Source: Lunatibacter salilacus (GTDB lineage: Bacteria > Bacteroidota > Bacteroidia > Cytophagales > Cyclobacteriaceae). Taken from it: DNA of 64,000 bases. This document shows, in pieces, positions 18,073 to 32,083 of this stretch (the stretch's first letter is position 1; each line of letters starts with the position of its first letter). The stretch is taken from NCBI RefSeq assembly GCF_009797935.1, contig NZ_VOLC01000006.1, positions 1 through 64,000 of the forward strand, in the 5' to 3' direction. A program made the translations under genes and the position numbers. A model generated the notes under the pieces. It had not been told where the DNA came from. It worked only from the letters and a program-made list of their open reading frames with translations, and did no database searches.

Positions 18073-18957
18073 TTAAAGATGTTTTACGGAGTAATTAAAA
18101 TCTGGTGACTTTGCAATAGCTTCTGACAAATGCGAACGATGGCACTGACAAGGTTCTGCTTCAAAACATGTTAAAGCAATGCGCTTATAATCTTTTAGCA
18201 GTTCTAAAATCTGTATTTGTGATGAAATAGATTCCATTAAGGTTGTATTGCGGTAATCTGCAAATAAACGGTCATAATCTGCCTGCGTCTCTAGTTCTTG
18301 ACGCTTGTCAGAGTTGATGCCGACTTCAGGAATATGCAAGTATTCAATTTCCAAGCTGTTGCAATACCGTTTCAACAAAGTTTTGCTAAAACCAAACTTC
18401 ATGCTCAACGGATTTTTCCGAACATCGACTAGCAACTTTACATTATTTTTTACAAGTTTTTGCAAATACATTTCCAAGGAAATGCCTTCATATCCAATGG
18501 TAAACAAAGTGGTTTCTTCATCTTTAGGCATTGCATTCTCCACTCGGTCATAAAGTTTACCCGGCAATACATCTTTGGCTATGGTGCTTCGAATGGCATA
18601 AAACGGAAAGTTCAAATAGGTATGCTTAATGAGGGCGTTACTGCCCATTTGTCCATAATCCGAAACTATTTCTTGCAAAAGCTTGGCGTCTGCTGGCTTC
18701 AGCTTTTGAAAATAGCTTACCAAATCGCTCTTACCATATTTATTTTCGGTTTCTGATAGAAAACCTTTTTTAGCCCTGGTATTCATATCCGCTTTAGCGG
18801 AATAGGAGTAACAACCGAATTTATAGGGTATAAAATCATACTCTGGATTTTGCTTTTTCATGGCATACAAAAACAGCAGCTTTTGGAAACGCAGCTTTTC
18901 CACTTCGCCACCAAGCAATTCAATTAATCCTAATATAATTTTTCGTCTATAAAACAT
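18073..18957 (-). CDS. DUF4065 (Panacea/SocA-like) fused to DUF488
   Basis: 294 residues. The N-terminal part (1-140) with KLRFQKLLFLYAMKKQNPEYDFIPYKFGCY resembles the DUF4065/Panacea domain found in SocA and many antitoxins. The C-terminal part (about 150-290) is DUF488: TLFTIGYEGISLEMYLQKL, LLVDVRKNP and the closing ALTCFEAEPCQCHRSHL with its conserved Cys and CHR. DUF488 is of unknown activity but recurs in defence neighbourhoods. The gene heads a two-gene unit with the 79-residue protein. A role in toxin neutralisation or phage defence is inference from domains and location beside a restriction locus. Confidence 0.8.
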   Translation of the reverse strand: MFYRRKIILGLIELLGGEVEKLRFQKLLFLYAMKKQNPEYDFIPYKFGCYSYSAKADMNTRAKKGFLSETENKYGKSDLVSYFQKLKPADAKLLQEIVSDYGQMGSNALIKHTYLNFPFYAIRSTIAKDVLPGKLYDRVENAMPKDEETTLFTIGYEGISLEMYLQKLVKNNVKLLVDVRKNPLSMKFGFSKTLLKRYCNSLEIEYLHIPEVGINSDKRQELETQADYDRLFADYRNTTLMESISSQIQILELLKDYKRIALTCFEAEPCQCHRSHLSEAIAKSPDFNYSVKHL

Positions 18958-19330: not shown

Positions 19331-22300
19331 TTATTGGCCTATTCTTGGATTATCAATCATTCTTTTCATGGTGTCAAATAATGCCTGGTAGAATGATTCA
19401 TCTTTTGCGTATAGTTTGTAAAGTTCAAGTTCTTTCCTGCGTTGTTGTCCCATGACATCATCCAAAATCTTCTTAAATGCCAAATCTCTGTTTTGTGCGT
19501 CTTTGTTGTCGGCTACTTTGGATTGATAGTCTGGATGCGCTTTTATATGTTTACTTATGGAAATAAACTTTACCCGCTGGTCTTCCGGTGTAGCATCCCA
19601 ACCATGGAACCATCTTTCATTGAAGGTTCTGATGATTTCATCCAACTGATCTTTTTCATCCTCGCCTCCGTGAGCACCCCTTGGGTTAGGGTTTTGTGGA
19701 TCTAATTCTGTTGCCGAATCGTCCAATCCAATAGCGTGATTCAGTTTGGTACGCTCTAAACCATAAGTGGACAAATCAACTGATTCCAACAACTCGTCAA
19801 TCAATGCATCTTCTCTGGTTTTCACAATCAGTTTAGGAATAAGGAATTTCAAAAACCAGAACAGCTTTTCCCATTCCAAGACCTCATAAGGCATAATAGA
19901 GGCCATTTGCCCGTATATTTTTACAAACTGCTTGGCTTTAATTTTAAAATCAACCTTCTCTTCTTCCTCTAATTCCAACTCCTGATTAAAACGGTCAGCG
20001 GCTACATCAATTATAGGACTGAGTTGCTGGGCATCGACCCCGTCAAAATACTTTTCTACAAAGGATTCTATTTCTGACCATTCATAAACGCCCACATCAT
20101 CTAATGTACCTTTCAATTCGTGGAGCACATTGATATCTGTAGCCCGGCTCAATGATGTGGAAGTATAAAATGGATCAAAAGAGTTTTTGATGTCATCCAC
20201 TTGATTGAAGAAATCCAGGATGAACAAGTCTTCTGTTTTCTTGCCCAATTTGTCTGCTGCCCTGTTTAATCTGCTCAATGCTTGTACAGCCAATACACCT
20301 TGTAATTTCTTATCCACATACATGGTACAAAGCTTTGGCTGATCAAAACCCGTGAGGTATTTATTAGCGACTACCAACAAGCGATAATCATCAGAATCGA
20401 AATTATCCCGGGTGTCCTTTTCTGCAAAACCATTTAATTCTGCCTCAGAGTATTCAACGCCATCAACTGTTTTCTTACCGGAGAATGCAATTGCGATCTT
20501 AAATGGATTGCCTTTATCATTCAGGATGTTTCGCATGGCTAAGAAGTAACGAACTGCTGAAATGATATCCTGGGTAACCACCATGCCTTTAGCTTTCCCT
20601 TTTAGCTTCTTGGTGTTGTACACTTTACTGATAAAGTGATCCATCATGATTTCTGCTTTGGTGGCGATGGTACGTTTATCCCGCTCTACATAAGCACGTA
20701 ACTTCTTCTGGGCTTTTTTGGTATCGAAAAGTGGATTATCCTCAATGGATTTTTCTATTTCGTAATAGCTTTTATAGGTAGTATAGTTTGCTAATACATC
20801 CAGTATAAAGCCTTCCTCAATGGCTTGTTTCATGGAATACAAGTGAAAAGGCTTGAAAGATCCATCTTCCTGTTTGCTGCCGAAACGCTCAAGAGTTGCA
20901 TTTTTTGGGGTTGCCGTAAATGCTAAGTAAGATGCATTGCCTTTCATTTTCCGGGCTTGCATGGCTTTCAGGATTTTGTCCTGGGGGTCTTCTTCCTCCC
21001 TGTCCTGAGCGGAGTCGAAGGATTCCTCATTTGCTCCCATACCCATGGCCTGATTCATAGTGCCTGCTGCTGTGCCACTTTGAGAACTGTGTGCCTCATC
21101 TATGATTACTGCAAATCGCTTGTCGCTCAAATCAGCAATGCCTTCTACAATGAAAGGAAATTTTTGGATAGTGGTAATGATGATCTTTTTGCCTTGTTCC
21201 AGGCTGTTTTTCAAATCATTGGAGGAATAAGCTGGAGCAATAATATTTTTGACCTCTGAAAATTCCTTGATATTCTCACGTAGCTGCTTGTCCAGCAGTC
21301 TTCTATCTGTCACTACTATTACCGAGTCGAATAAAGGATTCTGAATGCCCTTGGAACCTGGTAGACCTTCTCTTTCGGGATAGGTTTCTATCAACTGATA
21401 AGCTGCCCAGGTAATGGAGTTGGATTTTCCCGACCCTGCCGAATGCTGGATCAAATAGGTATGTCCAACACCCTTTTTCGAAGCATGGTTGAGTATTTTC
21501 CGTACCACATCCATTTGATGATACCGTGGAAAATATAGTGTTCGCTTATTCAAAGCATCTGTGGCTTTGCCATCAAAGCGAACAAAGTGTTGAATGATAT
21601 TGGCTAAACTTTCTCTCTTGAAAACTTCTTCCCAAAGGTAAGCAGATTTATGTCCAAATGGATTTGGGGGATTGCCTTTTCCGTCGTTGTGGCCTTTGTT
21701 GAATGGTAAAAAAAAGGATTTGTCCCCTTCCAACTTAGTACACATATATACTTCATCCGTATCTACGGCAAAGTGCACAATAGCCCGGCCAAATTGGAGA
21801 AGGGGTTGGCGAATGTCTCTATCGTACTTGTATTGCTTAATCCCATGTACTTTGGCGTTTTGTCCTGTCCATTGGTTTTTGAGTTCGAGTGTAGCGATGG
21901 CTATACCATTGACAAACACTACCATGTCTATTTCTTCCCGTTGGTTTTCCAGGTTATAGCGAACTTGACGGGTAACGCTGAACTCGTTTTTTTCAAAGTT
22001 ATCTTTTACCGTTTGACTACTGCTGGCCATGGGCAATTGAAACAGTAAGGTGAAATGAGCATCTTCTACCTCCAACCCTTTTCGAAGCAAACGCAGGATG
22101 CCGTATTTTTTCACCATTCGATCGAAGCGTTCCAAAATTTTGAGTCTCCTATCGGTAGATCGCTTTAATTTATCAAGCTCTTCTTTTTGTGTGTTCTCCA
22201 AAAAATGCCAAAAACGATTTTCATCCAACGCATATTTAGCGTTGAAATCATTCGCATGACCCATATAAAAGCCATTTCCACTACGATAGATTTCAGCGGG

Positions 22301-22408
22301 TTCTGAAACCACCATCAAGTCATTCCCTATGTCCTCGGAAGAGGCACCAGTTAAAACTTTTTCTATGGCCGCTTCAAGGGCTGCTTCGTTGGTTTTACTT
22401 GTAGTCAT
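19331..22408 (-). CDS. hsdR: Type I restriction endonuclease subunit R
   Basis: About 1025 residues from the ATG at 22408 (TTG at 22414 discounted). It is the DNA-translocating and cleaving subunit. The PD-(D/E)XK nuclease has D161, E175 and K177 in EEIDMVVFVNGIAI and ATLELKN. The SF2 motor has Walker A at HSAGSGKSN (322-330), DEAH at 437-440, TATP after it, and the QALSRLNRA motif VI. Residues 463-471 (SFDSAQDRE) come from a dispersed repeat inserted in frame between motor motifs. It is the last gene of the restriction locus, and its start overlaps the DUF4062 remnant by 14 bp. A complete enzyme is expected with HsdM and HsdS. Confidence 0.96.
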   Translation of the reverse strand: MTTSKTNEAALEAAIEKVLTGASSEDIGNDLMVVSEPAEIYRSGNGFYMGHANDFNAKYALDENRFWHFLENTQKEELDKLKRSTDRRLKILERFDRMVKKYGILRLLRKGLEVEDAHFTLLFQLPMASSSQTVKDNFEKNEFSVTRQVRYNLENQREEIDMVVFVNGIAIATLELKNQWTGQNAKVHGIKQYKYDRDIRQPLLQFGRAIVHFAVDTDEVYMCTKLEGDKSFFLPFNKGHNDGKGNPPNPFGHKSAYLWEEVFKRESLANIIQHFVRFDGKATDALNKRTLYFPRYHQMDVVRKILNHASKKGVGHTYLIQHSAGSGKSNSITWAAYQLIETYPEREGLPGSKGIQNPLFDSVIVVTDRRLLDKQLRENIKEFSEVKNIIAPAYSSNDLKNSLEQGKKIIITTIQKFPFIVEGIADLSDKRFAVIIDEAHSSQSGTAAGTMNQAMGMGANEESFDSAQDREEEDPQDKILKAMQARKMKGNASYLAFTATPKNATLERFGSKQEDGSFKPFHLYSMKQAIEEGFILDVLANYTTYKSYYEIEKSIEDNPLFDTKKAQKKLRAYVERDKRTIATKAEIMMDHFISKVYNTKKLKGKAKGMVVTQDIISAVRYFLAMRNILNDKGNPFKIAIAFSGKKTVDGVEYSEAELNGFAEKDTRDNFDSDDYRLLVVANKYLTGFDQPKLCTMYVDKKLQGVLAVQALSRLNRAADKLGKKTEDLFILDFFNQVDDIKNSFDPFYTSTSLSRATDINVLHELKGTLDDVGVYEWSEIESFVEKYFDGVDAQQLSPIIDVAADRFNQELELEEEEKVDFKIKAKQFVKIYGQMASIMPYEVLEWEKLFWFLKFLIPKLIVKTREDALIDELLESVDLSTYGLERTKLNHAIGLDDSATELDPQNPNPRGAHGGEDEKDQLDEIIRTFNERWFHGWDATPEDQRVKFISISKHIKAHPDYQSKVADNKDAQNRDLAFKKILDDVMGQQRRKELELYKLYAKDESFYQALFDTMKRMIDNPRIGQ
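20996..21022. repeat. In-frame dispersed repeat inside hsdR
   Basis: The string ctgtcctgagcggagtcgaa and flanks encode SFDSAQDRE in hsdR. The same peptide, from the same DNA string, is a familiar intruder in predicted proteins of Bacteroidota and some other phyla, from general recollection. It sits in an acidic, poorly conserved loop (NEESFDSAQDREEED) where insertion should be tolerated. Confidence 0.7.
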
Positions 22409-22949
22409 GGGCAATTTTTTGTTTTATTTCCAGTCCAGCTTTTGTCAATCGGTAGCACTGTTTCTTACTTTTCGGATTATCTGGAATGGTCATTTCAATC
22501 CATTTGTACTCTGTTGCAGGATCAAGATAGTTTTCATTAATATTTGTCCGATGCGTAAATCCCAACCTTTCCATCATTTCATCCCTACATAGCTCTCCAT
22601 CCAATATCCACAAAAGTCGGTGTCGCAAGTATTCAAGGTATATAAATAATTGATCATGTGCGGTAACCTGGTCGGTGCCCGAAGAAGTGCGCCAAATCAT
22701 AACCGAAAATGATTTACTATCTTCAAACCCATACTCAACACCCAATATACCCAAGTGGATATCAGCTTTTTTAACTTCATGGAGGTAAACTTTTCCAGGA
22801 TTATCACCCGTAGCAGCCACTTCTTTAAACAAAAAAACATCAAAAAACAGCATCAACAACTCATCCTCTCGAATATAGGAAGATACAGCTTGCCTAATAG
22901 CCGCAAACTCCGTTTGAACACTTGATAAGAGAATTGTTTCTTTGGGCAT
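22395..22949 (-). pseudogene. Internally deleted DUF4062 / HATPase_c_4 / winged-helix gene
   Basis: 184 codons. The N-terminal 95 residues (ETILLSSVQTEFAAIRQAV ... VKKADIHLGILGVEYGFED) are a DUF4062 (TIR-like) domain. From SFSVMIWR onward the sequence is the tail of a HATPase_c_4/AlbA-type protein with a Fic-like winged helix: EYKWIEMTIPDNPKSKKQ and YRLTKAGLEIKQ. In full-length relatives several hundred residues, the AlbA and ATPase domains, lie between these parts. The frame is kept across the deletion, so a small fusion protein could still be made. It starts 93 bp after the second DUF262 gene. Confidence 0.65.
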
Positions 22950-23041
22950 TCAGATAAATTTACATAGGTCAGTTTAAAAACAAGATTTCAAATTTTTCTA
23001 TGGTGTCCACAATGATGTTATTTTGGTTTTTAAGATCCGAC

Positions 23042-25339
23042 TCAGATTCTTTGCAAAATTTGATTTACAGCACTCTCTATATCGTCATAAATATAAATTT
23101 CCTCGACAGGTTTTGATGACTCTGCGTCTGTTAGTCCAAATTTTCCAATGCCTCTGTTGAAATCTAGATCGATTATTTTTTCACCTTTTTTAAACTCTAT
23201 CTTGGGATTTGAGTTTTCACCCTTCCCATAACGGTACTTTAGCTCAAATTCATGCTTCTTTTTCTCATTCGCTAGAAACCAGTCGAGGGTAAAGAGCTCA
23301 GAAAATCGCCCTGATATTCTAGTTGAATTTAGTAGAAAGATTGAGTGGTTATATTTTCTTATATGATGTTGATTAGAATAATCTAAAACCGTCGGATTAA
23401 ATAAGATTGTGTTAGTATATTTATCTTCTGATCTATATGATTTACAGATGATTTCTAGACTGGAAATAATATTTTCTGAATCAAATTCAGGAAGATATAT
23501 CAATTCATCTATCAATGAAAGGTTTGCTTGGATGAATCTCCTCCAATTTTCATTTCTATCCCTGAGAGTCCCTCTAATATTTTTTGGAAAGTAATACTTA
23601 TTTAATTCAGGTTTGAAATAGGAGTCCATCTGAGAAAGGAAGGATCTAAATAAGAGGTAGTTGCTTTGGTTAAGTACATCTTCAGAAAATAAAGCTCTGA
23701 TCTTTTCCCCTTTCACAATCAAATGATCGAAATCATTTTTAGCGATTTCAAGAATAAAGCCGATTTGTCCATAAAAGTAATTATGGGTTTCCAGTTTAAT
23801 AAATTGAGATTCCCATTCAATTTCTAGATTTTCTATGATCAATTTTGACTTGAGAACCTCTTCTTTGACTTGTTCTCCGTCAAAGAAGTCTATGCAACCC
23901 TCTAATTGAGAAAGTTTTTCGTATACATTTTTAGATCCGAGGATATTTATTAAAGAGTCAATACTTCTACAAGCAGTTCTATGCAAATAGGCTGTTTCAA
24001 TCGGTGTATTGAATATTAGGTTTCCGATAACCCTGGCCCATTGTTCAAAAAAAGTGAAGTCTCCACCATTGTTAATGATATACCGGGACAACGCATACTG
24101 ATAGGTATTGTTAGGAAAGTTTAAACCTTGATTATTCTTGAAAAAATATTCTTTCAATGAATTAACCTGGTAACTCTCGTAAAAGCTGTAGTCTTTCTCC
24201 ATTCCGCTGAAAATATCCAATAGAGTGATGTAGCGATCAATGTTTTTGGAGAAGGTTTCGTTACTTTCAAAAAGAGGTATAAGATCTTTTTGACTGGAAG
24301 TCCTAAGCAGCTCTGTACTCTTGTCTGCATTGATCTCTGATGCGGCACTCTCATCAGTGTATTTTTCTATTAGGTAGTCACTTAGATATAAACTCTTAAA
24401 AAACTGAAGATACTTTTCGTCAATTTCTTCGACTTCTTTCACATGAACCCAAAAAAGGTCAAACCACTCAATGTCTAATTTCCGACCTAAATCCTTGTCG
24501 CCAATTCTATCTTTATGGTTTTGTAGTAGCCATGCCTTAAAATTTTCAAAACCAGACAATGACTTCCCCCTAGCATTCATTTTCACATACAATTCGTCAG
24601 TAAGATCAAACTCATCCAAATCAAAAAAATCAAAAGACACCACATTCAAGTCAGTCAAAGCTTCCCAAGCTTCATCACTTTTGATGTTTTTTTCTTTAAC
24701 AATTCTTTCTATTTGTTTGAGAACAGACAGCATGCTATTTACCGTCGGATCTTTGATCCATGAAGTAAAAAACAATTCATCGTTCAAAATCGCTTGGAAT
24801 AGACCTTTCTCCAATTGTAAATTAAGAATTCTTGAGTCACAAAGCAATTCCAAAAATTCTTTTGAACTATTTCTGGTTGTATAAGTAAATCTTTTTAGAA
24901 TTTCTAAACCCATTTCATCCCTATTCAAAAAGGCAAAATACCAATGGATTAAAAACAGTGTGGTTAGTCTTTGCTGACCATCTAACGGGATAAATGTGAC
25001 AATTTCGGATTGTTGCTCTGATTTTTTAGAAGTTGAAAACTCAACTTTCAAATAGAGATTTGCAGCGTAATTTTGGACAGAATGTAATAATGAATCTATA
25101 CTGTGCTTATTTTTCTCCAGTAAATGGAAATTCTCTTTTCCCTCTAACTTGCCATAAATAAAATCTAAGTGAAGTTTTTTACTTGGATCCTTACAGGAAG
25201 ATAAAATTGATTCTATCAATTTTCTACTGATCTCATGGGCACTCTTTCTGCCATAAGTATAATCTCTCTGAATGGTCGGAATTTCAATGCTATATTCACA
25301 AATCAACTTCCAAAAGCTGATTTTTATTTCTTTGTTCAT
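23042..25339 (-). CDS. DUF262-domain protein (first of a pair)
   Basis: 765 residues. The N-terminal DUF262 (ParB/Srx-like nucleotidase-nuclease) domain shows IPTIQRDYTYG (20-30) and the hallmark DGQQRLTTLFL (120-130). DUF262 proteins drive NTP-dependent restriction of modified DNA in GmrSD, BrxU and SspE. This one has no HNH motif; the rest (about 330-765) is an unknown helical region. Its ATG overlaps the stop of the upstream DUF262-HNH gene by 4 bp (ATGA), so the two are translationally coupled. A partner or specificity role for the HNH-bearing protein is inferred. Confidence 0.85.
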   Translation of the reverse strand: MNKEIKISFWKLICEYSIEIPTIQRDYTYGRKSAHEISRKLIESILSSCKDPSKKLHLDFIYGKLEGKENFHLLEKNKHSIDSLLHSVQNYAANLYLKVEFSTSKKSEQQSEIVTFIPLDGQQRLTTLFLIHWYFAFLNRDEMGLEILKRFTYTTRNSSKEFLELLCDSRILNLQLEKGLFQAILNDELFFTSWIKDPTVNSMLSVLKQIERIVKEKNIKSDEAWEALTDLNVVSFDFFDLDEFDLTDELYVKMNARGKSLSGFENFKAWLLQNHKDRIGDKDLGRKLDIEWFDLFWVHVKEVEEIDEKYLQFFKSLYLSDYLIEKYTDESAASEINADKSTELLRTSSQKDLIPLFESNETFSKNIDRYITLLDIFSGMEKDYSFYESYQVNSLKEYFFKNNQGLNFPNNTYQYALSRYIINNGGDFTFFEQWARVIGNLIFNTPIETAYLHRTACRSIDSLINILGSKNVYEKLSQLEGCIDFFDGEQVKEEVLKSKLIIENLEIEWESQFIKLETHNYFYGQIGFILEIAKNDFDHLIVKGEKIRALFSEDVLNQSNYLLFRSFLSQMDSYFKPELNKYYFPKNIRGTLRDRNENWRRFIQANLSLIDELIYLPEFDSENIISSLEIICKSYRSEDKYTNTILFNPTVLDYSNQHHIRKYNHSIFLLNSTRISGRFSELFTLDWFLANEKKKHEFELKYRYGKGENSNPKIEFKKGEKIIDLDFNRGIGKFGLTDAESSKPVEEIYIYDDIESAVNQILQRI

Positions 25340-27129
25340 GATTCTATCGGAAAGTATTTGTTTAACTGGTCTTTGATATGGTTTTTGTACTCTTCCATAT
25401 CCTTTATACCAAAAATTTTATCGGTTATATTTTCCTCTTCTTTAGAAAAAGCTTTGGTAAATACGTCTTTAGTACCATTCGGAATATATGTGATTTCATC
25501 ATCTGACGATTTCTGATAATAGATTTCTAGGATTTCCTTCCTCTTATCAGTAAAAATCTTGTTCCCCAATTTACTATTGGTATTCCGGTCAAGTAAACAG
25601 AGGTTTCCTATTTCATGAAGTGATAATTCATCACTTATTTTCTCTATCACCTCTTCGTAGACTAGTCGGTCATTTTTTTCAAATCTAAAATCAGCAAATT
25701 TCGAATCCAAATCTCTTTTACTTGAAAAATTGTCAATCAGACTAGAGATTCTCCCGACTACTTCCTTGCTGTCCGGATCAGTAATTTTATCAAAATAAGT
25801 TTGATAGGATTTTAGCCATCCTATTACATCTCTGATGGTTTTGAATCCTCTTGGGTTTTGAGGATTGATGTGTTCCACACTCCATTTTTCATTGAGGTAG
25901 AGGTTAAAAGGAAATTTTTCATCAGAAGACCTATTTAAGTAATCTTCGATATTCAAGAGGAGTAAGATATTTTGGCAGGCAATTCTATATTTCTCGTAAT
26001 GGAGATTTTCTAGTCTATGATAAGCTATTTTTTCACCTTCAATATCTTTGGTTTTTGAGAGTTGATCTCGAATCTCTCTCAAAAGGAGCTCTTTGAATTC
26101 TTCTTTTGTTGGACCTTTACTCATTTCTACAATGCTGGATAACCTTTTGTATTTCGTGACGATTAAGAATCCAATGTAATGAAAGAGCTTCTTGTCTGTA
26201 TACCACTCCTCTATTTTATTAAAGGTTTGTTTAATAGCTTGCCAGTCTAGTTGTTCTCCTGTCTGAAACTTTTTATCATATTTTTTGTAAGATGTCTTCC
26301 TCTGATCCTCTGTATCGATCTTTGGTACTTGATTGGCTAAATCTATGATCAAGTCTATCCGTGTATCAAGGTTGTTGTAATAATCATTGTCACAGATAAA
26401 CGACCAAAAAGTATCATTTTGCAACTGATTCTCTATCCTGTCCCAATCACTGGCAAGATCAAAGGCCTTCAACTTCCCGATTTCGTTAGAATTTTGTTTT
26501 TGAATATCTAAAATGAACAAAGCTTTAATGAGTTCTGAATTGGTCAGTGGGATTTTTCCAGCATTTAAGTTCAGAAATACAGCCTCTGGTGAGATGTCAG
26601 GGTTATTCAGCGAGATATCATACCAAATTATGTGAACCGAATTTTTAAGCTTGGCGAAAAATTCTACTCTATCCGCCTTGCTTTCATCAAACCACTTCTT
26701 GATTTCCTTGTAGACTTTGAAGAAAAAATAGATGTCAACGTTATTAAAGCTGCCGTTTTGGTTTATGAAGGTTTCCCAGGTTGAGTTTGAATAGTCATCC
26801 AGTAACTGTAAACCAGTATCCAAAAACTCCCTTGTTTTCTCTCTTGTTTGATAGGAAATACTGTAAAATGAGTTATCCTGTAAAAAATGTAAAATAAGGT
26901 AAATTGACGTGACTCGCTGTTGTCCATCTATCAACTCTACTTGGTCATTGCGCTGATGTACCAATAGTGGTTGCAAACAATACTTTCCATGTGTATGATT
27001 ATGAATATCATTTAACAAATCTCTGATTTGCTGATCTTCCCATTTATAACCTCTTTGATAATCCTTCACCACAAAGTGGAGATTTTTTAAATCACTAATG
27101 GGTCTAAAGTCTATGTATTCTGTTTTCAT
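25336..27129 (-). CDS. DUF262 plus DUF1524 (HNH) protein, GmrSD-like
   Basis: 597 residues. DUF262 motifs are QRGYKW (25-30) and IDGQQRVTS (67-75). A C-terminal DUF1524 His-Me finger nuclease is seen in WSVEHINPQNPRG and LSLHEIGNLCLLDRNTNSKLGNKIF. This is the architecture of GmrSD-type type IV restriction enzymes that cut DNA with modified cytosine or phosphorothioate. It begins 1 bp after hsdS and overlaps the next DUF262 gene by 4 bp, so it is embedded in the type I operon. It may act independently, or guard DNA that type I cannot cut. Confidence 0.9.
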   Translation of the reverse strand: MKTEYIDFRPISDLKNLHFVVKDYQRGYKWEDQQIRDLLNDIHNHTHGKYCLQPLLVHQRNDQVELIDGQQRVTSIYLILHFLQDNSFYSISYQTREKTREFLDTGLQLLDDYSNSTWETFINQNGSFNNVDIYFFFKVYKEIKKWFDESKADRVEFFAKLKNSVHIIWYDISLNNPDISPEAVFLNLNAGKIPLTNSELIKALFILDIQKQNSNEIGKLKAFDLASDWDRIENQLQNDTFWSFICDNDYYNNLDTRIDLIIDLANQVPKIDTEDQRKTSYKKYDKKFQTGEQLDWQAIKQTFNKIEEWYTDKKLFHYIGFLIVTKYKRLSSIVEMSKGPTKEEFKELLLREIRDQLSKTKDIEGEKIAYHRLENLHYEKYRIACQNILLLLNIEDYLNRSSDEKFPFNLYLNEKWSVEHINPQNPRGFKTIRDVIGWLKSYQTYFDKITDPDSKEVVGRISSLIDNFSSKRDLDSKFADFRFEKNDRLVYEEVIEKISDELSLHEIGNLCLLDRNTNSKLGNKIFTDKRKEILEIYYQKSSDDEITYIPNGTKDVFTKAFSKEEENITDKIFGIKDMEEYKNHIKDQLNKYFPIES

Positions 27130-27130
27130 A

Positions 27131-28438
27131 TCAACTCACTTTAATCTTCCCCGTCACTACACTGTCGATCATCGTAGCCTTATATTCTTTCAGCTTCTCA
27201 ATTTGGGTTTGTTGTAAAGAAATTGTTTGGTCTATTTTGGCGGATTGGGTTTCGATGTGGGCAACGATGGAGGTTTGTTCCTTTTGAGGCGGAACGACGA
27301 TAAAACGACCTGCTAAATTATTAAATCTTATTCGGACTGCCCTCTGTCTTACCGCATTGCAAATGACTTGAATATATTTTGCTAGGGCCATTTCTCTTAA
27401 TAGAAGGGCGAAGTAAGTATTATTCGCTCCCTGATTTATGCTATCACATACAACGTATTCAGGAGTACATTTCCCCTCAGATTCGGAAACCCCAATTGCC
27501 CCTTCAAAAGCATCCATTGAGTTAAGAACTAATTGTCCTTTCCGAACCCCTTGAAATCCAGCTTCAAGAATAGCCTCTGTGTATCCAGTTAATCTTCTAT
27601 TACTTCTGAGAGTCACTTGCCCATCTCTGTAAGCAGTAACAATTTGATTATCGGAGCTCACAGGAAGCCTACTTTGCGCAAATAGATATTTAAACCTCTT
27701 CACCTCCCAACCCTCCGGTATCTCTCCAATCCATTCCACGCCGCTGTCTTTCATTTTCTCTTTGGGCGTCATTGACCATTCACCATTAATCATTGACCAT
27801 TTCCCCGTTACCGCATTTTGAATGATGATTTGCTTGCGTTCTTTGAGCAGGGCTATGAGCTGCTCTTTTTGGCCAATGGCACGGTCTATTTTAGCGGTTT
27901 TGTCGTCCAGAAAATTGGCAATGGCGGTTTGTTCTTCTATTGGAGGATAAGCCAATAAACTGTTTGCAATATGATTAAAACTAATAGTTTGTCTTACACC
28001 TGAGCCAAGGAGTTTCATATACGCCACATCATATCGGTGTAACAGGTAATTGAAATATGATTTATCAAGCTCCATTGCATTTTTGAGAACTATATAACCT
28101 GAACTCACAACCACATTGATACTCGAAAGCCCAATTCTTAAACTGATTAAGTCATAGTTTAAGTTAAGAGGGTTTACTAAATATTCACCTGCTAAAACCT
28201 CTTGGTAAGATGCCTTTGTTGATTCTGGTATTTTTTCATCATCCTTATAAACGACCTTACCAAAACTGATTGAACCACAATTTAGACTTGGGTTGGTAAC
28301 TTTCTTCTTCTCTTTAAAAACATGTTTCAATTTCATAATCTCCCAGTGTTCTGGGATTTCGCCCATCCAGTATTCACCCGAATCTTTGTAAGCGGAGTAT
28401 TTGTCTGAACATGATTTATGTGATGGCATGATGGTCAT
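27131..28438 (-). CDS. hsdS: Type I restriction-modification specificity subunit
   Basis: About 435 residues from the ATG at 28438; further ATGs at 28429 and a TTG at 28462 overlapping the previous stop by 4 bp are alternatives. Two half-repeats each begin DSG(E/V)xWxGEIPExWE (about 20 and 225), followed by a target recognition domain and a conserved coiled-coil ending in NAVTGKW or DSVVTGKIKV. It sets the DNA sequence recognised by HsdM and HsdR. The linker between halves contains KWSMINGEWSM, encoded by a minisatellite shared with intergenic DNA (27771-27802). Confidence 0.95.
   Translation of the reverse strand: MTIMPSHKSCSDKYSAYKDSGEYWMGEIPEHWEIMKLKHVFKEKKKVTNPSLNCGSISFGKVVYKDDEKIPESTKASYQEVLAGEYLVNPLNLNYDLISLRIGLSSINVVVSSGYIVLKNAMELDKSYFNYLLHRYDVAYMKLLGSGVRQTISFNHIANSLLAYPPIEEQTAIANFLDDKTAKIDRAIGQKEQLIALLKERKQIIIQNAVTGKWSMINGEWSMTPKEKMKDSGVEWIGEIPEGWEVKRFKYLFAQSRLPVSSDNQIVTAYRDGQVTLRSNRRLTGYTEAILEAGFQGVRKGQLVLNSMDAFEGAIGVSESEGKCTPEYVVCDSINQGANNTYFALLLREMALAKYIQVICNAVRQRAVRIRFNNLAGRFIVVPPQKEQTSIVAHIETQSAKIDQTISLQQTQIEKLKEYKATMIDSVVTGKIKVS
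27771..27802. repeat. Minisatellite units inside the hsdS linker
   Basis: Two copies of tggtcaatga-type units (attgaccatt on the plus strand) lie in frame between the first coiled-coil and the second recognition half of HsdS. The same string family occurs between genes at 17512-17580 and 19271-19308. Confidence 0.75.
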
Positions 28439-28458
28439 GATTTTTTGATTAGTATGAT

Positions 28459-28863
28459 TCAAGACTTTTTAATTTTCTTGTTGTACACCCTGTGGAATTG
28501 CAAACTTTGAGCACCGAAGTTGATGAGTAAACTGTCAGAAACGTGGTATGCTTCACAATAGTTGATGGCTTGTGCCTTATGTACACCCTCCAGTTGCTCT
28601 ATGGCTTTTATTTCCACCATCAAACAGTCTTCAACAAAAAAGTCTACTCTACGTGTTCCTACATTATAGCTCTTATACAAAAGGGGCATTTCAAGTTCAC
28701 GTTCATGAGCTATATTATTAAGGTTTAATTCGATACTCAATGCTCTTTGATAAACAACTTCTTGGAAACCGTTGCCCAATTGGTTGTGCACTTCCATTGC
28801 ACAACCAATTACTCTGTGGGTTAAGTCGTTAATTTCTTCCTTCGTTTTTAAAATCTTGTCCAT
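28459..28863 (-). CDS. GxxExxY-family protein
   Basis: 134 residues, full family length. The namesake motif is GFQEVVY (32-38). A PD-(D/E)XK-like core follows: D74 in RRVDFFVED, then E84 and K86 in MVEIKAIE. The family is of unknown function and its fold suggests a nuclease. It lies 3 bp after the ORF6N gene and runs into hsdS, so it is part of the restriction operon. Confidence 0.9.
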   Translation of the reverse strand: MDKILKTKEEINDLTHRVIGCAMEVHNQLGNGFQEVVYQRALSIELNLNNIAHERELEMPLLYKSYNVGTRRVDFFVEDCLMVEIKAIEQLEGVHKAQAINYCEAYHVSDSLLINFGAQSLQFHRVYNKKIKKS

Positions 28864-28866
28864 CTT

Positions 28867-29733
28867 TCAATCCTTTAAAATCCTGTTCAAGACTATTTCT
28901 ACCAAATGATCCATTTTGGAAAAAGCGAACCACTTCTTTCCTAAATCTTTTAAAGAAGCTCCCAAATGATAGAGTTCCTTTTGGTCGATAATCAAAAAGC
29001 GGTCGTGGCTATTGGTAAAAGTTTTCAAGGCAATGGGTGGGTATTGACTGTTGTGTTTGTCAAGGTCTAATTGCAGTTGTTTAGAAACTTGCTTGGTAAA
29101 AATGGTGGCGTTTGTGTTTTTCTTCCGCTTGGCCAATATGGTCAGCACGCTTTCGTCCACATAGTTATCTATCAGTATGATATCGTTTTTGGCCTTTTTG
29201 ATGATATCGGCTACAAACACATAGGCATCAAAAATTTGTCCTTCGAAGAAAATGCCTTTGTCAGGTTCTGGTTTTCCGGCTTCTAGGGCTTTGAAGATTT
29301 GCTCTAGCTTTTCATCTGTTTTGAGTTGTTTCAACTCCACTTGGTCGAGGCGTTGGAAAACTGAAGCGTTGTTGAGCAGAAAATTGCGCATGGCAACAAA
29401 TGCTTGCATGATTTGTATGGACACATTAACGGCCACATCACTTCTCAGTACAGCTGACAGCATGGCCACTCCTTGCTCTGTGAAAACATAGGGATTAGAC
29501 GGGCTATGTTTCAGGGTTTCTAAGCGGTCACAATTTGTGACCAGTTCCATTTTCTCTTCCTTTGTTAGCTGAAAACGAAAAGCATCAGGAAAGCGATTGA
29601 TATTTCTTTTTACAGCTTGATTTAAAACTTTGGTATCTACTTGATACAAGTCAGCTAAATCCCTGTCAACCATCACCTGAATTTTTCTGATGGTGAAAAT
29701 CCTATCTTCAATATCTCTTTTGCTTAGCTCCAT
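28867..29733 (-). CDS. ORF6N-domain DNA-binding protein
   Basis: About 288 residues from the ATG at 29733 (TTG at 29736 discounted). The N-terminal ORF6N domain (about 1-95) has the family strings IQVMVDRDLADLYQV, LNQAVKRNINRFP and FRFQL. The C-terminal part (about 165-285) with DNYVDESVL, SHDRFLIID and GASLKDLGKKWFAF looks like a phospholipase-D-like fold without the full HKD motif, as in many ORF6N proteins of Bacteroidota. It starts 4 bp after hsdM. Such genes often sit between hsdM and hsdS; a regulatory or defence-accessory role is inferred. Confidence 0.88.
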   Translation of the reverse strand: MELSKRDIEDRIFTIRKIQVMVDRDLADLYQVDTKVLNQAVKRNINRFPDAFRFQLTKEEKMELVTNCDRLETLKHSPSNPYVFTEQGVAMLSAVLRSDVAVNVSIQIMQAFVAMRNFLLNNASVFQRLDQVELKQLKTDEKLEQIFKALEAGKPEPDKGIFFEGQIFDAYVFVADIIKKAKNDIILIDNYVDESVLTILAKRKKNTNATIFTKQVSKQLQLDLDKHNSQYPPIALKTFTNSHDRFLIIDQKELYHLGASLKDLGKKWFAFSKMDHLVEIVLNRILKD

Positions 29734-29737
29734 CAAC

Positions 29738-32083
29738 TTACATCTTCAAAATATCCATGATTAAGCCTTCACTCTCTTGCTCCAATGCCAGTATTTCCGC
29801 ACTCACTTCTTCAATAGGTCGTAGGGGCTTGTGCTGGTAGAAATATTTGTTGAAGCTGATTTCATAGCCAATTTTGGTTTTGTCCAGATCAATCCAGGCT
29901 TCCTCCACATGCGGTTTTACTTCCCGCAAAAAATAGTCGTGAATGTTTTCTGCCAAAGGCACACTTTCACTGTCACGCAGGTCGGTTTGATTTTCGTAAA
30001 TGATGTATTCGTTCGACTTTCCGCTTGGGTAGTAGCCGTAATCGGGTAGTTGCTCTTCAGTACAATCCAAATGATCCAAGACTTGGTCGAGCTTTTCGCC
30101 ACTTAGCTTTTGGGTTTTCTTGATGACCTTTTCGGCTGTTTCTTCATACCAACTTACGGCAGCCAATAGTTGATTCTTTTCGCTGGCAGAGAGTTTTGAT
30201 TTTTGGGCTTTGAGTTCTTGGTTCACTTCCTCCAAAAAGACATTGTAATCGCTGTATTCATCCGTACCAATGGCTTCCATTAACTGCTGGGCAGTTTCCA
30301 ATATTTCCTTTTGCTTTTTCCAAGTAGCGGCCGTCGTAAGTGCTTTGCGCTTTTTGGCGTTTAAGTCCTGATCGTTTTTCTCACACCATTCCAGTAGCTC
30401 TTTTTCAATGTATTTTAAATCGGTGTAAACGCTTTCGCCAAAGGTTTCAAAAGCCCATTGCATGGGTTCTTTGAGTGTTTTGTCATAGCGCAAGTCGGCA
30501 ATGCGATCGACAGAAAACTGCGCTTTCAATCTGGCCGGTCGGTCAATCGTTACTTTGTAATAACCAAAATCGGAATTATCAAAAACCTTGGCTGCCAAAC
30601 CATCTTCGCCTTGGCGCTCCACCGTCTCAAAATTGGTATAGGCATCCTGAATTTCTTGGATGTGCGTAGCCGTCAATTCGCAGTTCTTATTGCCCAGGTT
30701 TTTACGCAGTTTGGCAAAACGCTGAGAAGCATCAATCAGCAACACTTTTCCTTTTCGCTGGGCTGCTTTGTTGTTGTGCAAAATCCAGATGTAGGTAGTA
30801 ATGCCGGTATTGTAAAACAGGTTGTTGGGCAATTGGATAATACAATCCAACCAATCGTTTTCAATGATATGTCTGCGGATATTGCTTTCGCCACCTCCGG
30901 CATCACCTGTAAACAAGCTAGAACCGTTATGCACCGAGGCAATACGGGAACCCAATGGGCTTTGGCTGGTCGGTTTCATTTTGTTGACCATCTCCATCAG
31001 AAAGAGCAATTGTCCGTCAGAGGAGCGGGGGGTAGCATCTGCTACTTCTACATTGCCCCAATAATCTTTGAGATTTACTATAAAACGGGAGTCGATGACA
31101 GCATTTCCATCCTTGATATATTTTACTTCACTTGCCCATGATTTTCCATAAGGTGGATTGGAAAGCATAAAATCAAAGTTGTGTCCGGAAAATTCATCCG
31201 TGGAAAGGGTAGAACCCACACGGATGTTTTCAGGGTTATTTCCCTTGATCATCATGTCGGACTTACAAATGGCATAGGTCTCATCATTGATTTCCTTGCC
31301 ATATAGGTACACATCACCCATAGCCCGAATGGCACCTTCTTCATCTTTGATGAAATTCTGCGACTCCGTAAGCATACCACCCGAACCACAAGCAGGGTCA
31401 TAAATGGTCATGACGGGAGGCAATTGGTCTTTGATCGGATCAAAAACAATATGCGTCATCAGGTCGATTACTTCTCTTGGGGTAAAGTGCTCTCCTGCTT
31501 CTTCGTTGTTATCCTCGTTGAATTTCCGAATCAGTTCCTCAAACACATAGCCCATGCCTAAGTTGGAAAGCGGCGGGAGTTTTCTGCCGTCAGGGTCTTC
31601 TACCTCAAAAGGAGTTAGATTGATTTTAGGCGAAGTGAATTTCTCCAATACATCGAGCAATACATCTTTAGCTGCCATGTGCCGGACTTGGCTTTTCAGC
31701 TTAAACTTGTCAATGATCTCCTTGACATTCGGACTAAAGCCGTTGAGGTAATCCTCAAAATTGGCTTGCAAGATCTGCTGACTGTTGGTGGCAGTGTCAT
31801 ACAGTCGTTGCAAAGTCCATTCACTGGTATTGTAGAAGACGTAACCACTTGCGTCTCTTAGACCGGTCTCATCCCATTCCGTAAATCCAGCCTCATCCCG
31901 TTGGAAAGCAAGTTCCTCCATCACCGCTTCTTTGGTTGGTTCGAGCAAGGCATCTAGCCTACGCAACACTACCATAGGAAGGATAACGTCTCGGTATTTT
32001 CCTCTTACATAAACGTCTCTTAGACAATCGTCAGCTATTGACCAGATGAAGGAAATTAATCTATTGTGTACGGATTGGTTCAT
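29738..32083 (-). CDS. hsdM: Type I restriction-modification methyltransferase subunit
   Basis: 781 residues. It transfers methyl from SAM to adenine N6 at the site chosen by HsdS. An N-terminal HsdM_N helical domain (1-150) is followed by SAM motif I DPACGSGGM (229-237) and catalytic NPPY (309-312) in SNPPYGKSW. A long C-terminal region (about 480-781) has coiled-coil character. It is the first gene of the seven-gene restriction unit that ends with hsdR. Confidence 0.96.
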   Translation of the reverse strand: MNQSVHNRLISFIWSIADDCLRDVYVRGKYRDVILPMVVLRRLDALLEPTKEAVMEELAFQRDEAGFTEWDETGLRDASGYVFYNTSEWTLQRLYDTATNSQQILQANFEDYLNGFSPNVKEIIDKFKLKSQVRHMAAKDVLLDVLEKFTSPKINLTPFEVEDPDGRKLPPLSNLGMGYVFEELIRKFNEDNNEEAGEHFTPREVIDLMTHIVFDPIKDQLPPVMTIYDPACGSGGMLTESQNFIKDEEGAIRAMGDVYLYGKEINDETYAICKSDMMIKGNNPENIRVGSTLSTDEFSGHNFDFMLSNPPYGKSWASEVKYIKDGNAVIDSRFIVNLKDYWGNVEVADATPRSSDGQLLFLMEMVNKMKPTSQSPLGSRIASVHNGSSLFTGDAGGGESNIRRHIIENDWLDCIIQLPNNLFYNTGITTYIWILHNNKAAQRKGKVLLIDASQRFAKLRKNLGNKNCELTATHIQEIQDAYTNFETVERQGEDGLAAKVFDNSDFGYYKVTIDRPARLKAQFSVDRIADLRYDKTLKEPMQWAFETFGESVYTDLKYIEKELLEWCEKNDQDLNAKKRKALTTAATWKKQKEILETAQQLMEAIGTDEYSDYNVFLEEVNQELKAQKSKLSASEKNQLLAAVSWYEETAEKVIKKTQKLSGEKLDQVLDHLDCTEEQLPDYGYYPSGKSNEYIIYENQTDLRDSESVPLAENIHDYFLREVKPHVEEAWIDLDKTKIGYEISFNKYFYQHKPLRPIEEVSAEILALEQESEGLIMDILKM

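What the first reader, a model, noticed from the sequence alone, without database searches (positions are those of the whole stretch)
19331..32083. Type I restriction operon with an embedded GmrSD-like DUF262 pair
hsdM, ORF6N, GxxExxY, hsdS, DUF262-HNH, DUF262 and hsdR lie on one strand, with 4-bp overlaps and 1-4 bp gaps in the middle. The DUF262 pair is translationally coupled and starts 1 bp after hsdS. Type IV-like enzymes inside a type I operon could cut invader DNA that carries modifications blocking type I, making one layered system.
Basis: partly seen in the sequence, partly recalled or inferred. Interest (0 to 1): 0.7.

Follow-up and report, generated by a model that had tools for sequence, protein, structure and literature searches.

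The report
GrwAB-type restriction pair inside type I operon
A bacterial DNA-restriction operon carries, tucked between two of its genes, a second two-gene restriction system of a recently described kind; related operons carry other defence genes in the same spot, so this looks like one of several interchangeable passengers.

Summary
On the minus strand, 32083-19331, lie hsdM, ORF6N, GxxExxY, hsdS, DUF262-DUF1524, DUF262 and hsdR with the stated gaps. One gene was missed: a 184-aa DUF4062/Fic-like_C ORF before hsdR.

The DUF262 pair matches the published GrwAB in gene order, architecture and spacing of catalytic residues. It is not TgvAB-like: order, spacing and tree differ. In 80 of 80 relatives returned by a genome scan the second gene follows the first. 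Of 88 scored relatives, 16 sit between hsdS and hsdR and 72 do not. The pair looks like an autonomous module, embedded repeatedly.

Sixteen operons of the window's hsdR lineage hold different contents in that slot: GrwAB-type 2, TgvAB-like 3, TmtA-like 5, NsnABC 1, small ORF only 3, nothing 1, rearranged 1.

The layered-defence idea is published for TgvAB, and this slot has been called a potential hotspot for defence systems. Modification-dependence here is inferred by homology. Possibly new: GrwAB-type pairs in this slot, and cargo turnover within one type I lineage. A solid but modest finding.

The parts
29738..32083 (-). hsdM, type I methyltransferase subunit, 781 aa
   Evidence: HsdM_N + N6_Mtase; PADLOC MTase_I 8e-267; DPACGSGG and NPPY motifs
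28867..29736 (-). ORF6N-domain protein, 289 aa, cargo between hsdM and hsdS
   Evidence: PF10543 9.5e-31; PADLOC candidate PDC-S05 1.1e-124
28459..28863 (-). GxxExxY protein (PDDEXK_3), 134 aa, cargo between hsdM and hsdS
   Evidence: PF13366 5.8e-36; TIGR04256 1.1e-37
27131..28462 (-). hsdS, type I specificity subunit, 443 aa (TTG start)
   Evidence: Methylase_S 3.2e-8; PADLOC Specificity_I 1.4e-92 over residues 21-442
25336..27129 (-). GrwA-type protein: N-terminal DUF262 (QR 25-26, DGQQR 68-72, F185...N189) and C-terminal DUF1524 His-Me nuclease (H420, N509, N518), 597 aa
   Evidence: GmrSD_N 2.9e-28, GmrSD_C 2.1e-5; R72, H420, N509, N518 invariant in 80 of 80 rows; model pLDDT 92.6; VIA: DndI Z 14.7 (rmsd 13.0, 296 aligned), SspE 13.9 (12.7, 473), BrxU 7.0 (11.6, 360)
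23042..25339 (-). GrwB-type protein: N-terminal DUF262 (Q24 R25, DGQQR 120-124, Y251...N255) and a long C-terminal part without DUF1524, 765 aa
   Evidence: GmrSD_N 1.2e-20 only; Arg124 in 74 of 74 rows; model pLDDT 86.0, Foldseek SspE 2.4e-5, VIA SspE Z 14.2 (rmsd 4.2, 207 aligned, residues 3-257)
22395..22949 (-).
   Evidence: PF13271 3e-10, PF21247 5.5e-21; a 100-aa Fic-like_C ORF sits before hsdR in L156 and a 515-aa SLFN_AlbA_2...Fic-like_C protein in L153
19331..22414 (-). hsdR, type I restriction subunit, 1027 aa (TTG start; in-frame ATG at 22408)
   Evidence: HSDR_N, SWI2_SNF2, ResIII, T1R_D3-like; nuclease-like, Walker A and DEAH motifs; start codons
18073..18957 (-). DUF488 protein, 294 aa, downstream neighbour (373 bp gap); membership of the operon unproven
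   Evidence: PF04343 2.1e-23; PADLOC candidate PDC-M19A 1.1e-126

Best explanation
A type I restriction-modification operon carries an autonomous two-gene GrwAB-type restriction module as cargo between hsdS and hsdR. Shown: the anatomy, the intact catalytic motifs, the constant pairing and gene order in the relatives retrieved, the repeated embedding, and the varied contents of the slot in related operons. Inferred by homology to GrwAB, BrxU and SspE: the two DUF262 domains act as a nucleotide-driven sensor of hypermodified phage DNA, the DUF1524 domain of the first protein cuts that DNA, and the second protein is an essential partner. Inferred: type I restriction (unmodified foreign DNA) and the pair (hypermodified DNA) act independently and share an operon because it is a carrier of exchangeable defence cargo.
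For: Order (nuclease-bearing gene first, S-only gene second) equals GrwA-GrwB. Published GrwA R81, H431, N521, N530 versus window R72, H420, N509, N518: intervals R-H 350 vs 348, H-N 90 vs 89, H-N 99 vs 98. In 80 of 80 loci returned by the genome scan the S-only gene follows on the same strand. DUF262 trees: window-type A one clade (100/97), B one clade (100/100), apart from TgvAB-like S and SD. Folds like DndI, SspE and BrxU. The embedding label needs 10 changes (at least 9 by starred branches) on the A tree, 16 of 88 scored embedded. Sixteen operons of one hsdR lineage hold different slot contents. In 11 operons compared with the window at DNA level (10 of the 15, and L027), homology lies in hsdR, in hsdM where present, and in short stretches of hsdS, apart from the pair itself in L164 and L027 and about 100 bp of the DUF4062 ORF in L156.
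Against: No V. cholerae GrwA or GrwB sequence was compared, so membership rests on published residue positions, order and architecture. GrwA-like spacing is not a sharp test: in the 80 rows the H-N interval runs from 68 to 116. Window B has a longer stretch before its DGQQR (Arg124 versus GrwB Arg86), and its third motif reads Y...N where the published pattern is F...N. Foldseek alone gave no PDB hit at E<=0.001 for A; relatives came first only in the VIA second look, with large rmsd over the whole chain. The target modification and any activity of this pair are untested. The embedding label is clustered on the tree (shuffled mean 15, as low in 0 of 500), the window's 12-row subclade has 9 embedded, and the three GrwAB-bearing operons of the window's hsdR lineage (window, L027, L130) fall in one 5-row subclade, so long residence in that lineage is possible. 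Contents vary, but exchange between operons was not traced.
Confidence: 0.8

Rival explanations
1. Dedicated layered system: the type I enzyme and the pair evolved together as one unit that covers plain and modified DNA.
For: Nine of 12 rows in the window's subclade are embedded. Two operons outside the window's genome (L027, and L130, fetched again as L164) keep a GrwAB-type pair with hsdM/hsdR 71-75% identical to the window's, and their A proteins fall in the window's 5-row subclade. The complementary idea is proposed for TgvAB (PMC11411939).
Against: In those two operons A is 46-47% and B 38-40% identical to the window's, less than hsdM/hsdR. The closest relative of A (77%, L024) has no hsdS upstream in 12 kb; its downstream side is cut by the contig end. 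Fourteen of 16 operons of the hsdR lineage have no GrwAB-type pair. TgvAB protection was kept with a mutated HsdR nuclease (PMC11411939).
Confidence: 0.1
2. The pair senses the state of type I methylation (as SspE depends on host phosphorothioation) and acts when HsdM/HsdS is blocked or when DNA carries or lacks the type I mark.
For: SspE and DndI, which sense a host-made mark, are the nearest folds. PrrC, embedded in a type I locus, is activated when the enzyme is inhibited (PMC12707154, passage).
Against: In 67 of the 88 scored rows no hsd gene was called in the stretch held (72 not in the slot, less L049, L080, L091, L100 and L131), though the profiles came from few seeds. In L045 hsdS and hsdR are in pieces while the pair ORFs are intact.
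Confidence: 0.05
3. TgvAB orthologue: the same system as in V. cholerae VPI-2.
For: Same slot between hsdS and hsdR; two DUF262 proteins, one with DUF1524.
Against: Reverse gene order; H-N interval 89 or 98 versus 31 in TgvB; separate clades for both subunits; a TgvA-like S (L158) carries DUF7834, which window B does not show.
Confidence: 0.02

Closest known systems
GrwAB (GmrSD-like type IV system of WASA V. cholerae, PMC12137116)
   Same: Two adjacent genes, DUF262+DUF1524 first and DUF262 with a long extra C-terminus second; catalytic residues at near-identical spacing; both genes together
   Different: GrwAB was characterised in VSP-II beside a Shedu gene. The paper's main text has no mention of hsdR, hsdS, T1RM or 'type I restriction'; supplements not read. 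Sequence identity to it not measured
[quoted passage not shown]
   Same: Two-gene DUF262 system between hsdS and hsdR; same proposed complementary role
   Different: S-only gene first, different S partner, nuclease H-N interval 31; TgvAB-like proteins form separate clades
RRDM island (DarTG2 between hsdS and hsdR, PMC12255303)
   Same: Defence cargo in the same slot; [quoted passage not shown]
   Different: Cargo is a toxin-antitoxin system; the island has the repressor RptR
BrxU, SspE, DndI, Eco94GmrSD (GmrSD family)
   Same: Fold and motifs of the first protein
   Different: Not paired with a second DUF262 protein in the published descriptions seen here
RloF of Campylobacter jejuni and GmrSD homologues near type I loci (PMC4619093)
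   Same: DUF262 gene between hsdS and hsdR genes, reported earlier
   Different: Described there as a gene, not as a GrwAB-type pair

Membership tests
GrwAB | Two adjacent genes: DUF262+DUF1524 first, DUF262 with long C-terminus lacking DUF1524 second | tested here: met
   the order also holds in 80 of 80 retrieved loci
GrwAB | Nuclease residues at GrwA spacing (R81, H431, N521, N530) | tested here: met
   Window R72, H420, N509, N518; intervals 348/89/98 versus 350/90/99; among the 80 rows the ranges are 316-409, 68-116 and 77-125
GrwAB | QR, DGQQR and FxxxN in both DUF262 domains | tested here: inconclusive
   First protein: all three present. Second: QR and DGQQR present, third reads Y251...N255
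GrwAB | Sequence similarity to V. cholerae GrwA and GrwB | not tested
GrwAB | Both genes needed; restricts phages with modified DNA | not testable with these tools
   Needs phage assays
TgvAB | S-only gene precedes the DUF1524-bearing gene | tested here: not met
   Order reversed in window and in 80 of 80 relatives
TgvAB | TgvB-like nuclease spacing (H571-N602) | tested here: not met
   Window 89 and 98; ranges in the 80 rows 68-116 and 77-125
TgvAB | Subunits cluster with TgvAB-like S and SD proteins | tested here: not met
   Separate clades; the TgvAB-like rows were assigned by gene order and size, not by the V. cholerae sequence itself
TgvAB | Located between hsdS and hsdR | tested here: met
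Type I restriction-modification operon | hsdM, hsdS, hsdR on one strand with signature domains and motifs | tested here: met
SspE (phosphorothioate-sensing) | Partner modification genes sspABCD | not tested
   Not searched for in the genome

The most novel reading that the evidence does not exclude
In one lineage of Bacteroidota type I operons the hsdS-hsdR junction is a cargo bay: whole, unrelated anti-phage modules (GrwAB-type, TgvAB-type, TmtA, NsnABC) replace one another while HsdR (56-86%) and, where seen in full, HsdM (59-88%) stay related. Recombination in the conserved hsdM, hsdR and hsdS stretches could move hsdS and cargo as a block, and two non-orthologous two-gene type IV systems have reached the same place independently.
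Probability: 0.6. Interest if true: 0.5.

Novelty: new member of a known kind. Interest (0 to 1): 0.35.

Why it matters
GrwAB-type pairs have been tested from one cholera genomic island, with homologues reported in about 1% of genomes (PMC12137116). This work places them repeatedly inside type I operons and shows the same slot holding several different defence systems in related operons. That makes a testable site for finding unknown defence genes (open the slot, test the cargo), and it argues that such nesting need not mean mechanistic coupling.

Tried and rejected
Considered TgvAB first, from memory of the 2024 paper; rejected on gene order, residue spacing and tree. Considered a co-evolved type I + type IV unit; weakened by relatives outside type I operons and by the varied slot contents. 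Sequence search of solved structures with A and B gave only hits at E 0.09 or worse, read as chance. Foldseek with the A model gave nothing at E<=0.001; VIA on its candidates then ranked DndI, SspE and BrxU first. A scan for Bacteroidota-type promoters (consensus recalled) found one site, inside A and matched twice by the pattern, against 1.5 expected in shuffles: no information. PADLOC gave no match at E<=0.01 for the second protein.

Limits of the survey. The 395-genome search scored at most three candidates per genome and the HsdR search at most two. hsd genes were called by profiles grown from three seeds, plus motifs. 'Not in the slot' was scored from 2.5 kb or more on at least one side. 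Pfam on the nearest gene on either side of 82 such pairs (76 + 69 genes) shows one upstream gene with HSDR_N (L131's hsdR is in that set) and two with SWI2_SNF2, one of them L137's helicase-like neighbour without HSDR_N (only the 25 commonest families are shown). L131 lies directly after an hsdR, L100 has an hsdR 2.9 kb upstream, L049 and L080 have hsd genes 5.8 and 6.7 kb upstream, and L091 has an hsdM piece about 9 kb away; all were counted as not in the slot. Two partial hsdR hits (second copy in G465, contig-end piece in G022) were dropped before the 15-operon count. L132 and L133 lie on the same contigs as L071 and L105 and were left out of the tree, as was L135, whose first gene is split. 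Nine rows had too little flank to score. In one search, L151's NsnA was dropped for lack of DGQQR.
Full report
OBSERVATION. The window holds, on the minus strand, hsdM (32083-29738), an ORF6N protein (29736-28867), a GxxExxY protein (28863-28459), hsdS (28462-27131), a 597-aa DUF262+DUF1524 protein (27129-25336; here 'A'), a 765-aa DUF262 protein (25339-23042; 'B') and hsdR (22414-19331) (families). Signature motifs of HsdM, HsdR and both DUF262 domains are present. The reported anatomy is confirmed, with that one omission.

THE PAIR IS A UNIT. In 80 of 80 the B-type gene follows A on the same strand, with gaps from a 209-bp overlap (probably an over-extended ORF start) to 117 bp; some B genes are cut by contig ends. 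Five plasmid hits whose surroundings I read (of 22 records with a match) have the same pair and no annotated hsd gene in the displayed stretch. A's DGQQR Arg, catalytic His and two Asn are invariant in 80 of 80 aligned rows, and B's DGQQR Arg in 74 of 74 (window included). One short A ORF and seven short or cut B ORFs were left out of those alignments.

WHICH KNOWN SYSTEM. Passages and one section of PMC12137116 describe GrwAB. Its first gene encodes DUF262+DUF1524 with tested residues R81, H431, N521 and N530; its second encodes DUF262 plus further domains of unknown function; both are required. It acts on Queuovirinae, Tevenvirinae and some Markadamsvirinae, with escape through dpdA mutations. 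The window's A has R72, H420, N509 and N518: intervals 348, 89 and 98 against 350, 90 and 99. TgvB of TgvAB (abstract, passages and three sections of PMC11411939) has H571 and N602, an interval of 31, and TgvAB has the S-only gene first. A 59-row tree of DUF262 domains puts A rows in one clade (100/97), B rows in another (100/100) and TgvAB-like S rows in a third (99/96); TgvAB-like SD rows group with one single protein (98/95). The program warned of long branches meeting. A second, quick tree with six more TgvAB-like rows kept the same four groups (98, 100, 97 and, unstarred, 94 for SD). The 'TgvAB-like' label comes from gene order and size, and in some rows from a His near 543-574, e.g. L140, hsdM-hsdS-S-SD-hsdR with His568; not from the V. 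cholerae sequence. One such S protein carries DUF7834, which B does not show. The AlphaFold model of A (pLDDT 92.6) had no Foldseek hit at E<=0.001, but VIA ranks DndI (Z 14.7, rmsd 13.0, 296 aligned), SspE (13.9, 12.7, 473) and BrxU (7.0, 11.6, 360) above unrelated rows. B (pLDDT 86.0) matches SspE (Foldseek 2.4e-5; VIA Z 14.2, rmsd 4.2, 207 aligned). I therefore file the pair as GrwAB-type, with direct sequence identity to GrwAB untested.

HOW OFTEN AND WHERE IT IS EMBEDDED. On a 97-row tree of A, 88 rows had enough flank to score: 16 (window included) lie between hsdS and hsdR and 72 do not. Among the 16, L028 is cut before hsdR would appear, L066's hsdR was called by motif, L045 has hsdS and hsdR in pieces, and several have other ORFs in the slot. 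Among the 72, L131 lies directly after hsdR, and L049, L080, L091 and L100 have hsd genes farther off; 67 show none by these profiles. The label needs 10 changes (at least 9 by starred branches) against a shuffled mean of 15, as low in 0 of 500: clustered, but gained or lost several times. The window's subclade is 9 embedded of 12. In an evenly drawn sample of 395 Bacteroidota genomes, 12 (own included) have an A-type match at E<=1e-60, 13 matches in all (at most three candidates per genome scored). Of the 11 outside the own genome, 4 lie between hsdS and hsdR (L130, L132, L136, L139), 1 directly after hsdR (L131) and 6 elsewhere (L129, L133, L134, L135, L137, L138). HSDR_N itself occurs in 288 of the 395, so type I operons are common and few carry this pair. 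The own genome has a second embedded pair on another contig (L006).

THE SLOT HOLDS DIFFERENT CONTENTS IN RELATED OPERONS. I searched the same 395 genomes and 59 relatives with the window's HsdR and fetched the 15 near-complete hits of 58% identity or more (two partial hits dropped). By blastp of the ORFs these HsdR are 56-86% identical; HsdM is 59-88% in the 12 operons where it was seen in full (L150 has only a fragment, L153 is cut, L161 shows none). With the window that is 16 operons. Between hsdS and hsdR they hold: GrwAB-type pair 2 (window, L164); TgvAB-like pair 3 (L153, L157, L158; two with an extra SLFN_AlbA_2 protein); PADLOC TmtA-like protein of 1046-1480 aa 5 (L150, L154, L155, L159, L161); NsnA/NsnB/NsnC 1 (L151); a small ORF only 3 (L152, L156, L160); nothing 1 (L163, 9 bp between the genes); rearranged 1 (L162). 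DNA comparison of the window operon with 11 loci (10 of the 15, and L027) shows homology over hsdR, over hsdM where present, and over short stretches of hsdS. Over the cargo there is none at E<=1e-5 except the pair itself in L164 and L027 and about 100 bp of the DUF4062 ORF in L156. In L027 and L130 (L164 is the same place fetched again), HsdM and HsdR are 71-75% identical to the window's but A is 46-47% and B 38-40%; yet their A proteins fall in the window's 5-row subclade, which allows long residence in this lineage as well as exchange. The names Tiamat and Menshen for TmtA and Nsn are recalled, not from a call.

MECHANISM. Most likely the type I enzyme cuts DNA lacking its methyl mark, and the GrwAB-type pair independently senses hypermodified DNA through its NTP-driven DUF262 domains and cuts with A's His-Me nuclease. 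Modification-dependence and the need for both proteins are inferred from GrwAB and TgvAB. Independence is supported by the many relatives outside type I operons, by L045, and by the published result that protection by the TgvAB cluster survives an HsdR nuclease mutation (PMC11411939). That paper also reports 10- to 100-fold weaker protection by tgvAB alone against several phages, which its authors ascribe to expression. Co-location is best read as cargo in a shared operon.

LITERATURE. The complementary idea is in print for TgvAB (PMC11411939). Enrichment of GmrSD homologues near type I loci and RloF between hsdS and hsdR are in PMC4619093 (passages). [quoted passage not shown] A two-gene GmrS1/GmrSD2 system in E. 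coli is in PMC12373910 (passages). PMC12409362 reviews TgvAB and GrwAB (passages). The preprint on embedded defences by Payne et al. was seen only as cited in PMC11411939 and PMC12137116. A search for GrwAB found two papers. GrwAB inside type I operons and these cargo differences did not appear in what I saw (search listings, and the passages named), but supplements and bioRxiv preprints were not available, so the absence is weak.

VERDICT. Real, ordinary in kind, modest in novelty. The useful additions are the GrwAB assignment, the repeated embedding, and the varied cargo in one operon lineage.

Noticed in passing
window 22395-22949: DUF4062 + Fic-like_C ORF before hsdR. A 100-aa Fic-like_C ORF before hsdR in L156 and a 515-aa SLFN_AlbA_2/HATPase_c_4/Fic-like_C protein in L153 suggest the short ones may be remnants of a longer cargo protein.
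   Followed up: partly
hsdM-hsdS junction: window 28459-29736; L150, L151, L152, L156, L160: A second cargo slot: ORF6N+GxxExxY in the window; GxxExxY+YhcG (L150), a second hsdS-like ORF (L151), YhcG (L152), a kinase-helicase protein with GxxExxY (L156) and RhuM (L160) in related operons.
   Followed up: partly
window 33805-36330 and 18073-18957: Neighbours match PADLOC phage-defence candidates PDC-S28 (helicase) and PDC-M19A (DUF488), so the operon probably lies in a defence island.
   Followed up: no
L006:17240-17956 and L140:14095-14808: YgjP-like metallopeptidase directly after hsdR in two type I operons that carry DUF262 pairs; ORFs of 237-242 aa stand at the same place in L032, L033, L082 and L141 (not tested). 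PMC12255303 reports an M48 metallopeptidase downstream of its type I operon.
   Followed up: partly
L045:8922-17645: Psychrobacter submarinus contig: hsdS and hsdR are in two and three ORF pieces while both genes of the pair are intact.
   Followed up: no
L024:101-2179 and L025:50-2599: In G021 the closest relative of the window pair has a shortened second gene near a contig start, and another contig begins with a transposase-like ORF (rve, Mu-transpos_C_2) and then a 90-aa ORF that looks like the C-terminus of B; possibly one gene interrupted by an insertion element. Pieces were not joined.
   Followed up: no
L100:666-13883: A TgvAB-like pair followed by hsdR, then 2.9 kb on a GrwAB-type pair: both two-gene families close together.
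   Followed up: no
genes directly upstream of pairs not in the slot (alignment A5); L020, L024: Six of 76 such upstream genes have a WYL domain (loci not told apart there). WYL genes also lie a little further upstream in L020 (annotation) and L024. This suggests own regulation outside type I operons.
   Followed up: partly
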